Part shown: piece by piece, positions 46,281-49,774 of the stretch
Position numbering within the stretch: position 1 is the stretch's first letter
Layout: each line of letters begins with the position of its first letter
Assembly: GCF_001957125.1 (NCBI RefSeq)
Contig: NZ_MPHJ01000012.1
Location: forward strand, 62,001-126,000
DNA length: 64,000 nt
Direction of reading: 5' to 3'
From: Shewanella sp. UCD-KL12
GTDB lineage: Bacteria; Pseudomonadota; Gammaproteobacteria; Enterobacterales; Shewanellaceae
Translations under genes and position numbers: made by a program
The notes under the pieces: model-generated
The model's input: the letters and a program-made list of their open reading frames with translations, nothing else
Told to the model about the DNA's origin: nothing
The model's database searches: none

Positions 46281-47681
46281 ATGTCTATAGGATTAGTTAC
46301 TGCAGCTTATCTAGTTGCTGCCGTACTGTTTATCTTTAGTCTTGCTGGCTTAAGTAAACAAGAAACTGCCCAAAGGGGTAATATTTTGGGTATCGTGGGT
46401 ATGGTGATTGCTATTGTAGCAACACTTGCTAGTACTCAAATTGATGGTAACAGTTGGATTGTTACTGGTGCAATGGCTATCGGTGCCGCTATCGGTATCC
46501 GTTTGGCACTCAAAGTTGAAATGACTGAGATGCCTGAGCTGGTGGCTATACTTCACAGCTTTGTAGGTTTAGCGGCTGTATTAGTTGGCTTTTCAAGCAC
46601 AGTTGATCATGGCAGTTTAATGGATGCGGTCACAGGCGCTATCGACCCTGTTGCAAAAAGTATCCATGATGTTGAGGTCTTTCTTGGGATCTTTATCGGT
46701 GGTGTAACGTTCACCGGTTCTATTGTCGCATTTGCTAAGCTGCGCGGCCTAGTCAGCAGTTCGCCTAAAGCACTCCCTGGTGCTCATAAGCTAAACCTGG
46801 CCATGCTGATTGTATCGGTTGCCTTAGGCATCTATTTTATGCAGACCGATGCTATCGGTGCTTTGGTTATTGTCACTCTGATCTCCTTCGTGTTCGGTTA
46901 CAACTTAGTTTCCGCTATCGGTGGTGCTGACATGCCAGTTGTTGTTTCAATGCTCAACTCCTATTCAGGTTGGGCTGCGGCAGCAGCAGGTTTCATGTTA
47001 GGCAATGATCTATTGATTATTACTGGTGCATTAGTGGGTAGCTCGGGTGCAATCCTGTCCTATATCATGTGTAAAGCGATGAACCGCTCGTTCATCTCTG
47101 TGATATTAGGTGGCTTTGGCGCAGAAGGCGGTACCGTGGTTATCGCTGATGGTGAACAAGGCGAGCATCGTGAGACGCAAGCTGAAGATGTCGCAGAAAT
47201 GCTTAAAAACGCACGTAGCGTTATCATCGCGCCAGGCTATGGTATGGCTGTTGCTCAAGCACAATATCCAGTTGCTGAGATAACACAAAAGCTACGTGAT
47301 CGTGGTGTGAAAGTGCGCTTTGCTATACACCCGGTTGCAGGTCGTCTACCAGGACACATGAATGTTTTGCTTGCTGAAGCAAAGCTGCCATATGACATTG
47401 TGATGGAGATGGACGAGATAAATGAAGACTTCGGTGATACCGATGTTGTTCTCGTGATTGGTGCAAATGATACCGTTAACCCTGCAGCTAAAGAGCCTGG
47501 AAGCCCGATTGCGGGTATGCCGGTCCTTGAGGTGTGGAATGCTGAGAATGTTGTGGTATTTAAACGTTCTATGGCTACAGGTTATGCTGGTGTACAGAAC
47601 CCACTCTTCTTTAAAGAGAATACTGAGATGCTATTTGGAGATGCGAAAGCATCTGTATCTAAGATCTTAGCGAGTATCTAA
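46281..47681 (+). CDS. pntB: NAD(P) transhydrogenase subunit beta
   Basis: Beta subunit with about nine membrane segments in the first 260 residues and the NADP(H)-binding domain III from ~290. Conserved elements include [15 protein letters not shown] and [22 protein letters not shown]. The C-terminal [15 protein letters not shown] and [18 protein letters not shown] are NADP-binding landmarks. GGAG precedes the start. A strong terminator follows. Confidence 0.97.
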
Positions 47682-47723
47682 AATCAATAAGTAGCGTTTA
47701 TACGTTTACTTAAGATGATATTG

Positions 47724-47753
47724 AAATGCCAGTCAGTAATGACTGGCATTTTT
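47724..47753 (+). terminator. Terminator after pntB
   Basis: A perfect 12-base stem AAATGCCAGTCA / TGACTGGCATTT with loop GTAA and more T after it. Confidence 0.93.
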
Positions 47754-47758
47754 GTTTT

Positions 47759-48008
47759 CAACCCTAAACCACCTACTTCAGTAGGTGGTTATCATCTATA
47801 GGCTTTGCCTGAAGTCGTAAATAGAGCCTTTTTATGCCGAACTTTGTGCAGAGGTTTAGTGAATAGTGCAGTGCAAGCTTCTAAATCAGGGATGATTTAG
47901 TAGAGCCTATAGGGATATATCAACGGCGACTTGCAGGTGCACAGTAACTAAAGCTCCCTTATAGGGAGTCATTTTAAAGCCACCTTCTTTAGAAGGTGGA
48001 TTATTTAC
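47759..48008 (+). mobile_element. IS200/IS605-like non-autonomous element, copy A
   Basis: About 250 bp with a left-end hairpin CCACCTAC-TTCA-GTAGGTGG (47769-47788) and a right-end hairpin CCACCTTCT-TT-AGAAGGTGG (47980-47999), then ATTATTTAC. No ORF lies inside. Terminal hairpins without inverted repeats of the ends fit IS200/IS605-type elements that have lost their genes. The interior shows nested pairings: GAGGTTTAGT (47851) with ACTAAAGCTC (47947), TGCAAG (47872) with CTTGCA (47930), and CTAAATCA-GGGA-TGATTTAG (47881-47900). Confidence 0.65.
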
Positions 48009-48011
48009 TTT

Positions 48012-48386
48012 CAGCCCTAAACCACCTATTTCAGTCGGTGGTTATCATCAATTAGGCTTTGCCTGAAAGTATCTTGTTAAAGTGAGACCATCTGGGGTGA
48101 GTCGATTATTGTATCTATGGGGTACACAGCTTATAAGTTCATCCAGGTTTAGCCTTTTTATGCCAGATGTTGTGCAGAGGTTTAGCGAGTAGTGGGGTGC
48201 AAGCTGCTAAATCAGTACTGGAAATGCTTCATACATTTACCTGCATTCCAAGCCATCCATAGCGGTCAATGATTTAGTTGCGCCTATAGTGGTATTTTTA
48301 TGGCGACTTGCAGGCGCACGCTAGCTAAAGCTCCCTTCTTAGGCCGAAATTTCAAAATCACTTTCTTCAAAAGGTAGATTCTTTAC
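48012..48386 (+). mobile_element. IS200/IS605-like non-autonomous element, copy B (in tandem with A)
   Basis: About 375 bp starting CAGCCCTAAACCACC immediately after copy A. The left hairpin is CCACC-N10-GGTGG. The right hairpin is degenerate, ending AAAGGTAGATTCTTTAC. It shares the interior of A but has a ~90-bp insertion near 48060-48150 and a ~50-bp larger hairpin loop at 48215-48262. The outer pairing is GAGGTTTAGC (48177) with GCTAAAGCTC (48324), a compensated change relative to copy A. Confidence 0.6.
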
Positions 48387-48661
48387 ATATATTCCACAAT
48401 GTGGAATTGCTATCGCATGGTGGAATGGGATATTAGATTGAATATCTTATTCTATCGTGTATGTTGGGTTTTAGAGTCATCGGTTTATTTGCATTAAGTT
48501 TGGGCTTTATAAAACTTAAGTTTGAATGTTTGGTATTTAAGCTGATCTAAGTTTACTGTTTAATCATTTTATCAGTCGGAATTGTTTAGTATCTCTGCGA
48601 GCACTAGAACTTCCTTAAGCTGACTCGGTCATTAGCGTATTAATATAGATAAGGAAGTATT

Positions 48662-48841
48662 ATGAACAATTCAAAAAAAGTCGTTTTAAGAAATGATCAG
48701 AATAATCACCTTGATGATCAGATTGAAGGTTTTGGGGAATTCAGCATCACAAGCGTAATAAAAAAAGAGTATGAGGCTTATTATATTGAAGCAAATATGA
48801 GCGATGATGTGACTTGGAACTATGTGCGTGGTTATAACTAA
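48662..48841 (+). CDS. Hypothetical 59-residue protein
   Basis: A small ORF beginning MNNSKKVVLRNDQNNHLDDQ and ending DVTWNYVRGYN. A well-placed ribosome site (AAGGAAG, five bases before ATG) and a perfect terminator 86 bases downstream support its being a real gene. The protein is soluble, acidic and aromatic-rich near the end, without a signal peptide or known domain. It lies between IS200/IS605-like copies B and C. Function unknown. Confidence 0.5.
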   Translation: MNNSKKVVLRNDQNNHLDDQIEGFGEFSITSVIKKEYEAYYIEANMSDDVTWNYVRGYN

Positions 48842-48927
48842 AGGCTAATAAAGTGGCCAACACCCTTGGATAAAACGCTTCTTATTCACTATCCATGGAG
48901 TTCGAAGATAGAGATATCCTAAAATAT

Positions 48928-48956
48928 AATACCAGCCTAGGCTGGTATTTTTATTT
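48928..48956. terminator. Bidirectional terminator after the 59-residue ORF
   Basis: The perfect palindrome AATACCAGCC-TA-GGCTGGTATT flanked by A-rich and T-rich sequence. It is almost identical to the hairpin at 52061-52086 beside the ketoacyl synthase gene, consistent with a duplication. Confidence 0.85.
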
Positions 48957-48957
48957 A

Positions 48958-49269
48958 CAGCTCTAAACCAACGACTTCAGTAAGTGGCTATCATCCATAG
49001 CCTTGCCTGAAGTCGTTAATAGCTCCTTTTTATGTCGAATGTTGAGCAGAGGTATAGCGAGTCGTGCAGTGCAAGCTGCTAAATCAGTGCTGGAAATGTT
49101 CCATACGTTTATCTGCATTCCAAGCCATCCTTAGCGGTCGATGATTTAGCAGAGCCTATAGGGATATTAACGGCGACTTGCAGCTGCACGATAGCTAAAG
49201 CTCCCTTGGAGTGACTCATTTTAAAGGCACAATGTTCAAGGTACCTTCTTCAGTAGGTGGTTATTATTT
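48958..49269 (+). mobile_element. IS200/IS605-like non-autonomous element, copy C
   Basis: About 312 bp starting CAGCTCTAAACCAACGACTT and ending near GTAGGTGGTTATTATTT. It contains the full-length internal hairpin (TGCTAAATCA ... TGATTTAGCA enclosing GGAAATG ... CATTCC) and the composite outer stem GTGCAG/TGCAAG with CTTGCA/CTGCAC. It lies between the terminator at 48928 and the decayed ketoacyl synthase fragment. The intact paralogous locus at 52061-52132 has terminator and gene end directly adjacent, so this copy appears to have inserted between them. Confidence 0.65.
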
Positions 49270-49285
49270 AAGTTTTCTTTACTTA

Positions 49286-49412
49286 TCATTGATAGGCTTA
49301 CTTGGAATTAGCCACAAAATGCGTAACAGCTTTACTCATAAGCTCTATGCCTGTTTTGTCACAAGGTGGTAATCGGGCATCACTTTTCTTGATGGGTTCA
49401 CTAAGTCGAATA
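49286..49412 (-). pseudogene. Decayed duplicate of the 3' end of the ketoacyl-ACP synthase III gene
   Basis: Minus-strand sequence matches the end of the intact gene at 52130-53194. A frame reads [20 protein letters not shown], against [20 protein letters not shown] in the intact protein. The similarity covers the last ~30 codons and continues beyond the stop into GATAGGCTTACTT. One base is missing near the stop and no upstream part of the gene is present, so it is a remnant. Confidence 0.8.
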
Positions 49413-49509: not shown

Positions 49510-49774
49510 ATACCAATCGGTATAAGAAGGTGGTCAGTTCAGAGTTATTTTTGGCGGCTTAATTCAAGGCGAATGAGTGAGGGAATGGTGATCCCTTTCG
49601 AGCTTATTCAACACAGAAGTAGGCTGCCAAAAAACTCCTAGAAGGCGAGTTTTAGCACTTCTGATGCTGCGTTAACGAGCTTAAACGTAGAATAACTATG
49701 TCTCTTCACTCGTTGCCTTGTCTCACAAGCGCTAAACTCTCGCTGAATGGCCACATCTTTATACCGATTGGTAT
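49510..49774 (+). mobile_element. Dispersed MITE-like element, copy 4 (short form, plus orientation)
   Basis: A 265-bp copy bounded by ATACCAATCGGTAT and ATACCGATTGGTAT and lacking the ~50-bp module, like copy 2 but inverted. It lies upstream of the PhoX gene. Confidence 0.85.

What the first reader, a model, noticed from the sequence alone, without database searches (positions are those of the whole stretch)
47759..49269. Three gene-less IS200/IS605-like elements that share a conserved, RNA-like nested fold
Copies A (47759-48008), B (48012-48386) and C (48958-49269) have terminal CCACC...GGTGG hairpins and no genes. Inside, the same set of nested pairings recurs: an outer helix GAG-G-TTTAGY with RCTAAA-G-CTC, a second helix TGCAAG/CTTGCA, and an inner helix CTAAATCA/TGATTTAG. 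IS200/IS605-type elements encode guide RNAs (TnpB omega/reRNA, IscB/HEARO) at their ends. These could be orphan guide-RNA carriers served by a TnpB/IscB and TnpA elsewhere in the genome. The fold is seen in sequence; the guide-RNA role is inference.
Basis: partly seen in the sequence, partly recalled or inferred. Interest (0 to 1): 0.75.

Follow-up and report, generated by a model that had tools for sequence, protein, structure and literature searches.

The report
Gene-less IS200 elements with CsrA-like hairpins
Three short jumping-gene remnants without a transposase carry a folded stretch that resembles the binding site of a bacterial RNA-binding regulator, and the same fold is found scattered in the genomes of many other bacteria.

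Summary
A, B and C are real: gene-less derivatives of IS200. Relatives with the same left and right ends carry an IS200 tnpA. I assembled 17 copies in this genome; 16 of 17 lie behind terminator-like hairpins, and a relative has both insertion sites empty. The guide-RNA idea is not supported: HEARO, PF07282 (TnpB) and PF01797 (Y1 transposase) were not found in the genome, and the related full-length units read are tnpA-only.

The interior is a 65-nt three-way junction with two hairpins whose loops read A(N)GGA, the Csr/Rsm site pattern. Stems covary while loops stay; a loop-blind model found the same loops in fresh genomes (31 and 32 of 32). The module also occurs without IS200 ends, in 45 of 272 gammaproteobacterial genera sampled, often on a copy-specific stem. 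The closest known family is TwoAYGGAY RNA (RF01731), a predicted CsrA binder, but Rfam's cut-off is not reached. CsrA binding and transcription are not shown, and own-genome copies show no preferred gene orientation. A new variant of known kinds.

The parts
47759..48008 (+). Element A: gene-less IS200 derivative behind the pntB terminator; left boundary ambiguous within the T-run
47743..47815 (+). A left end, 91% identical to the left end of a tnpA-bearing IS200 (L037); the first bases may be terminator or target; holds the hairpin CCACCTACTTCAGTAGGTGG at 47769-47788
47871..47935 (+). A core: 65-nt three-way junction (closing helix, hairpin 47881-47900, hairpin 47905-47927), both loops AGGGAT, 20 nt between the two GGA
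47946..48008 (+). A right end, 82% identical to the right end of tnpA-bearing IS200 (L037) and holding the hairpin of 47977-48002
48012..48386 (+). Element B, inserted directly behind A; right hairpin degraded
48197..48312 (+). B core, with a 55-nt loop (48215-48269) in the first hairpin; second loop AGTGGT, so GGA is lost there
48958..49269 (+). Element C, behind the terminator that follows a 59-aa ORF; imperfect end hairpins
49069..49182 (+). C core, with a 55-nt loop (49087-49141) in the first hairpin
47724..47751 (+). Terminator-like hairpin with T-run behind pntB: insertion point of A (and of B behind A)
48920..48957 (+). Terminator-like inverted repeat with T-run: insertion point of C; empty in G254

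Best explanation
A, B and C are non-autonomous IS200-group elements without tnpA, which carry in its place a TwoAYGGAY-like structured module that belongs to a dispersed repeat family common in Gammaproteobacteria. Shown: ends shared with tnpA-bearing IS200, many copies, placement behind terminators, empty sites, a covarying three-way junction and two A(N)GGA loops. Inferred: the composite was spread by an IS200 TnpA acting in trans, which is not found in this genome now; the elements are mostly passive; and where the + strand is transcribed the two hairpins could hold one CsrA/RsmA dimer, making the copy a weak decoy or a Csr-sensitive site.
For: Both A ends match tnpA-bearing IS200 of Photobacterium and Pseudoalteromonas; the tnpA is NF033573 and PF01797. 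In the genus, G284 has 13 TnpA places and a left end 95% identical to A. 17 copies in the genome, 16 of 17 behind terminator-like hairpins against 165 of 2000 random and 443 of 1000 T-rich points. Empty sites in relatives. Composite copies read in eight other genomes, none with the TnpA at E 1e-20. Covariation. Loops A(N)GGA: 70 of 72 and 70 of 70 short loops, and with a loop-blind model 31 and 32 of 32. G.T pairs 25 against A.C 2 without the loop-closing pairs. Csr site pattern and spacing as given in PMC7652899 (passages).
Against: No Y1 transposase in the genome, so present mobility is not supported. B has lost GGA in one loop, and B and C have a 55-nt loop in the other; their single-sequence folds are unremarkable. 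The minus strand of A folds as well or better (z -4.2). Own-genome copies lie in either orientation to tandem genes (13 against 12), and A, B and C lie behind terminators, so steady transcription is doubtful. The review notes that most SELEX-selected CsrA hairpins have four or fewer contiguous pairs, whereas the first hairpin here has seven or eight. The measure 'further pair types' is weak: 9 of 500 shuffles reach it and 150 of 500. A Rfam TwoAYGGAY match over the cut-off was found nowhere in the calls made.
Confidence: 0.75

Rival explanations
1. The module works as folded single-stranded DNA: its hairpins and loops are recognised by an unknown mobility or recombination protein, and there is no RNA role.
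For: Dispersed copies, 52 of 57 intergenic by a crude ORF finder, with no sense bias in tandem gaps (13 against 12); copies or inserts nested in loops, such as the 55-nt loops of B and C; presence and absence at one locus among relatives; copy-specific stems.
Against: No such protein was identified. The conserved and free loop positions coincide with those of the Csr site, ANGGAN, which a DNA reading leaves as coincidence.
Confidence: 0.45
2. The module is a CsrA/RsmA-binding RNA (decoy or cis-acting site) that has become mobile, in part inside IS200 derivatives.
For: A(N)GGA loops in both hairpins, CANGGATG in the first, 20 nt between the GGA of A; pattern and bridging distance as in PMC7652899 (passages). 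Folding strand shown by G.T over A.C. Architecture like TwoAYGGAY, predicted to bind CsrA (PMC4333381, passages; alignment). A cap lies in sense between pfaC and pfaD and keeps its pairing between species.
Against: No transcript or binding data. No orientation bias to genes. Stems longer than in most SELEX ligands. A, B and C sit behind terminators.
Confidence: 0.35
3. Orphan guide RNAs served by a TnpB or IscB elsewhere.
For: IS200/IS605-type ends and a structured interior.
Against: No HEARO, PF07282 or PF01797 in the genome; related units read are tnpA-only; the module occurs without IS ends.
Confidence: 0.02
4. Chance palindromes in decayed IS200 remnants, without selection on structure.
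For: Single-sequence folds of B and C are unremarkable.
Against: Covariation over diverged copies, near-constant loops, and wide occurrence.
Confidence: 0.03

Closest known systems
IS200 group of the IS200/IS605 family (tnpA-only units; NF033573, PF01797)
   Same: Left and right ends, size class, placement behind terminators; relatives with the same ends carry the transposase
   Different: No tnpA in A, B or C nor elsewhere in the genome; interior replaced by the structured module
PATEs of Haloquadratum (palindrome-associated, gene-less elements with IS605-type ends; PMC3119063, passages seen)
   Same: Gene-less, near-terminal palindromes like those of IS605-type elements, and other small repeats inserted into them
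   Different: Bacterial, IS200-type partner; the inner module is structured and widespread by itself
TwoAYGGAY RNA (RF01731, clan CL00106; PMC2864571 table row; PMC4333381 passages)
   Same: Two hairpins with GGA hexaloops in one closing structure, on an external stem that is poorly conserved; predicted CsrA binder
   Different: Below the gathering score wherever tested: 40.4 of 43 bits at best (L219); 1 of 20 loci at E 0.05; no match for A, B or C up to E 10; loops are ANGGAN and not strictly AYGGAY
CsrB/RsmZ-type sRNAs
   Same: GGA in hairpin loops (PMC7652899 passages)
   Different: Two sites per unit, many dispersed units; not known to be transcribed
REP repeats (GTAG and CGTC families; PMC3733652, passages seen)
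   Same: Short palindromic intergenic repeats
   Different: Three-way junction with conserved loops; no Y1/RAYT transposase in the genome; no test for a GTAG or CGTC tag was made

Membership tests
IS200 group (as non-autonomous derivative) | Left and right ends shared with tnpA-bearing units | tested here: met
   left end about 91-95%, right end about 79-82% identical; tnpA NF033573 149.8 bits
IS200 group (as non-autonomous derivative) | Own Y1 transposase gene | tested here: not met
   no ORF in the elements; no PF01797 in the genome. Hence a derivative, not an autonomous member
IS200 group (as non-autonomous derivative) | Insertion without target-site duplication | tested here: inconclusive
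   empty sites in relatives and beside a G284 copy, but junctions lie in T-runs
PATE | Gene-less with near-terminal palindromes of IS605 type | tested here: met
   definition from passages of PMC3119063
TnpB reRNA / IscB HEARO guide RNA | Match to the RNA family | tested here: not met
   the HEARO control was weak (1 of 14)
TnpB reRNA / IscB HEARO guide RNA | A TnpB partner in the genome | tested here: not met
   PF07282
TnpB reRNA / IscB HEARO guide RNA | An IscB partner in the genome | not tested
   only its RNA (HEARO) was searched for
TwoAYGGAY RNA (RF01731) | Score over the curated cut-off | tested here: not met
   best 40.4 of 43 bits in L219, 37.0 in the own genome, none for A, B or C up to E 10
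TwoAYGGAY RNA (RF01731) | Two hairpins with GGA hexaloops within a closing stem | tested here: met
CsrA-binding RNA | ANGGAN hexaloops on hairpins, paired at a bridgeable distance | tested here: met
   20 nt in A. Not met by B in its second loop
CsrA-binding RNA | Binding by CsrA | not testable with these tools
   -
CsrA-binding RNA | Transcription | not testable with these tools
   no expression data; promoters were not scanned

The most novel reading that the evidence does not exclude
A gammaproteobacteria-wide family of dispersed 65-nt caps, often each on its own locus-specific stem, is a mobile CsrA-binding RNA: it plants paired Csr sites beside genes (for example between pfaC and pfaD), and in the genus of this window it travels inside tnpA-less IS200 elements.
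Probability: 0.3. Interest if true: 0.85.

Novelty: new variant of a known kind. Interest (0 to 1): 0.62.

Why it matters
If the caps bind CsrA, a global regulator would face tens of mobile decoy or recruitment sites in one genome (67 places here), carried in part by insertion sequences: a way for mobile DNA to rewire post-transcriptional control. Even without CsrA, a conserved cap on copy-specific stems in many genera is a pattern for which I found no description in the searches made, and its way of spreading is open. It also suggests that the TwoAYGGAY architecture is far more widespread than Rfam's cut-off shows.

Tried and rejected
Guide-RNA reading: tested with Rfam and family searches of the genome and dropped. 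Integron attC reading (tandem copies some 230-390 bp apart, GTTAGRY-like strings downstream, recalled motif): dropped by eye, not formally tested. Ribozyme reading: only thought of. Origin of the copy-specific stem (inverted duplication, or insertion into the loop of an existing hairpin): looked at in the pfaC-pfaD gap; undecided. Near-consensus cap against plasmids, phages and E. coli genomes: no match at the limits used. Faults of my own: loci of minus-strand matches were turned twice, so several rows show the wrong strand and the C13 rows a wrong place; no count rests on it. The IS flag was unreliable and is not used. One of the 67 R1 places (C1:833554) was never fetched. Of 20 regions fetched, 19 were analysed (L237, with two caps, left out).

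Full report
Observation. The three copies are present as described, and no ORF of 60 aa or more overlaps them. A lies behind the terminator of pntB (PF02233, NF006974), B directly behind A's right hairpin, and C behind the terminator that follows a 59-aa ORF (48662-48841; no Pfam match). Model R1 finds exactly three cores in the window, those of A, B and C; R2 finds A's alone. In single-sequence folding only A stands out (z -2.8 for 47840-47975; its minus strand -4.2; B -0.3; C -1.1).

IS200 identity. blastn with A in its own genome (G000, 5.69 Mb, 61 contigs) gave 42 pieces, which I assembled by hand into 17 copies; two further places hold only the left hairpin. Of the 17 left flanks 16 hold a terminator-like hairpin with T-run, against 165 of 2000 random points and 443 of 1000 T-rich points in fetched loci (the miss is C2_247). 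In plasmid records A matched 5, by its left end. Four of the five were opened. Pseudoalteromonas THAF3 has an annotated IS200/IS605 tnpA, and Photobacterium DA100 an unannotated 144-aa tnpA, each between ends like both of A's ends; the two Vibrio places are shortened units. The protein scores 149.8 bits with NF033573 and matches PF01797. In the genus, 58 of 97 genomes match A at E 1e-5 and 20 of 97 have the TnpA at E 1e-20, G000 not among them. G284 has 13 TnpA places, and its left end is 95% identical to A's. Composite copies (IS200 ends plus core) were read in G071, G288, G289, G305, G313, G323, G327 and G331; none of these eight has the TnpA at that limit. Only the best-scoring loci were opened, so other composites may exist.

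Empty sites. The 3' part of pntB was matched in 26 of 40 relatives, and six of those loci were read. G249, G253, G254 and G256 have the pntB terminator followed by other sequence, with no element in the stretch printed; G254 also has the small ORF and its terminator without C. The other two (G009, G016) have no element either, but their downstream DNA is unrelated. In G284 an IS200 copy lies beside a duplicate empty site. Junctions fall in T-runs, so a duplication of a few T is not excluded.

No guide RNA. In G000 HEARO (E 1), PF07282 and PF01797 (both E 0.001) give nothing. Controls rang in 1, 6 and 5 of 14 genomes, so the HEARO test is weak. Rfam at gathering finds nothing in the window, and at E 10 no guide family in 47600-49400. 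IscB was not sought as a protein.

The core. The central 65 nt of A are a closing helix with two hairpins. R1 was built from ten own-genome copies (covariation). It finds 67 places in G000 at E 0.1, with 150 of 3977 first-look candidates scored, so this is a lower bound. In the order it matches 55 of 247 genomes and 16 of 87 genera at E 1e-3, with 21 candidates scored per genome. Of the 15 loci printed, 13 had been fetched for core-only matches and had other surroundings than IS200 ends; series of neighbouring copies occur. For 72 distinct copies in 61 loci of other genomes (not all loci held were given), 94.8% of cells pair, and 411 cells have a change on both sides, against 115 +/- 11 in shuffles and at most 68 in slid versions. 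The alignment was fitted to the model. The measure 'further pair types' is less clear (9 of 500 shuffles reach it; 150 of 500). G.T outnumber A.C pairs 25 to 2 when the two loop-closing pairs are left out (A2); with them 25 to 16 in A2 and 31 to 14 in A3; 7 to 2 in A5. So the given strand is the one that folds; RNA and ssDNA are not told apart by this.

The loops. In the 72 copies the first loop has A(N)GGA in 70 of 72 and the second in 70 of 70 short loops (2 of 72 are long). In 54 distinct own-genome copies it is 43 of 45 and 47 of 50 short loops, with 9 and 4 long ones. R1 knew the loops, so I built R2 with the hexaloops masked and searched 369 genomes of the class: 49 match at E 1e-4, 45 of 272 genera, with 15 candidates scored per genome. 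The 29 new loci of that search, all given, hold 32 copies: A(N)GGA in 31 of 32 first and 32 of 32 second loops, 98.1% of cells paired, and 126 both-side cells against 31 +/- 4. A review (PMC7652899, passages) gives the CsrA SELEX consensus RUACARGGAUGU, CsrB repeats CAGGA(U/A/C)G in hairpin loops, the RsmE hexaloop ANGGAN, and bridging of sites 10-63 nt apart with an optimum above 18. A's two GGA have 20 nt between them. The same review says that most SELEX hairpins have four or fewer contiguous pairs, which does not favour the longer first hairpin here.

Closest RNA family. One cap (L219) matches TwoAYGGAY (RF01731) over the whole model at 40.4 bits, cut-off 43, with the model's two hairpins on the cap's two hairpins; among the loci it was 1 of 20 at E 0.05. 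G000 has 6 sub-threshold places at E 1, best 37.0 bits; 4 of the 6 lie within 200 nt of an R1 place and on the other strand, and none is in A, B or C. Gardner and Eldai (PMC4333381, passages; authors' names recalled) predicted from two motif matches that TwoAYGGAY binds CsrA, and mention a poorly conserved external stem. PMC2864571 (table row) lists it as probably RNA, in gammaproteobacteria, Clostridiales and human gut. So the core is TwoAYGGAY-like and not, by the cut-off, a member.

Copy-specific stems. In one search, 19 copies were looked at: the 7 of G569 (score 25-34) and 6 of G414 (15-22) each sit on their own stem, while the 6 of G579 largely share theirs (12-22). For 118 caps with full flanks the stem score has median 17.5, with 91 of 118 at 12 or more, against median 2.0 and maximum 18 in 500 mixed pairs of arms; 112 of 118 have distinct 15-nt arms. 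How such stems arise is open.

A cap at a gene pair. Between pfaC and pfaD (PfaD family TIGR02814; the name of the upstream gene rests on its dehydratase domains and recall) G000 has a cap. The query matched 107 of 129 genus genomes. Of 30 loci examined with R2, 3 hold the cap: G000, G261 and G262. Read side by side, G000 and G262 keep the pairing with several changed letters, in sense with pfaD. In the other 27 the gap holds other sequence.

Context. For 57 own-genome copies and a crude ORF finder, 52 are intergenic: 19 convergent, 25 tandem (13 in sense, 12 against), 4 divergent, 4 with one neighbour unknown. This suits a passive repeat at least as well as a regulator, which is why the Csr role is kept at about one in three.

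Verdict. The elements are IS200 derivatives; the interesting part is their load, a TwoAYGGAY-like module with two Csr-type loops that is more widespread than the known family and whose binding and mobility can be tested directly.

Noticed in passing
L380 1756-1820 (G000 C1:515194-515258, minus strand): A cap lies in sense between a dehydratase-domain gene (pfaC by recall) and pfaD, with compensatory-looking changes in G262; found in 3 of 30 loci examined. It could be a Csr-type leader element.
   Followed up: partly
window 48215-48269 and 49087-49141; L014, L118, L123, L131: A loop of about 55 nt replaces the tetraloop of the first hairpin in B, C and other copies; by eye its reverse complement again has hairpins with ATGGAT/ATGGAA loops, as if such units nest in one another's loops.
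   Followed up: no
L133 1696-1760 (+ strand): A second core-like unit in inverse orientation lies between the IS200 left end and the core of the G323 composite; by eye the same arrangement is in L134-L138.
   Followed up: partly
L100, L101, L102, L104, L105: Caps in series, some 150-390 bp apart, also on both strands.
   Followed up: no
window 49510-49774: Arms of 27 nt, 85% complementary, 211 nt apart, beginning ATACCAATCGGTATA: looks like a MITE beside element C; a similar string follows copy C1_652.
   Followed up: no
L214, L219, L237-L246, L251: Rfam Ysr224 (RF02770, Yersinia sRNA) matches 11 of 20 cap loci at 26-36 bits, cut-off 70, on the antisense strand in the cases checked (L214, L219); that family may be a relative of this repeat.
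   Followed up: no
L148 (G193): IS200 ends with yet another gene-less interior that again holds GGA/TCC-loop hairpins by eye.
   Followed up: no
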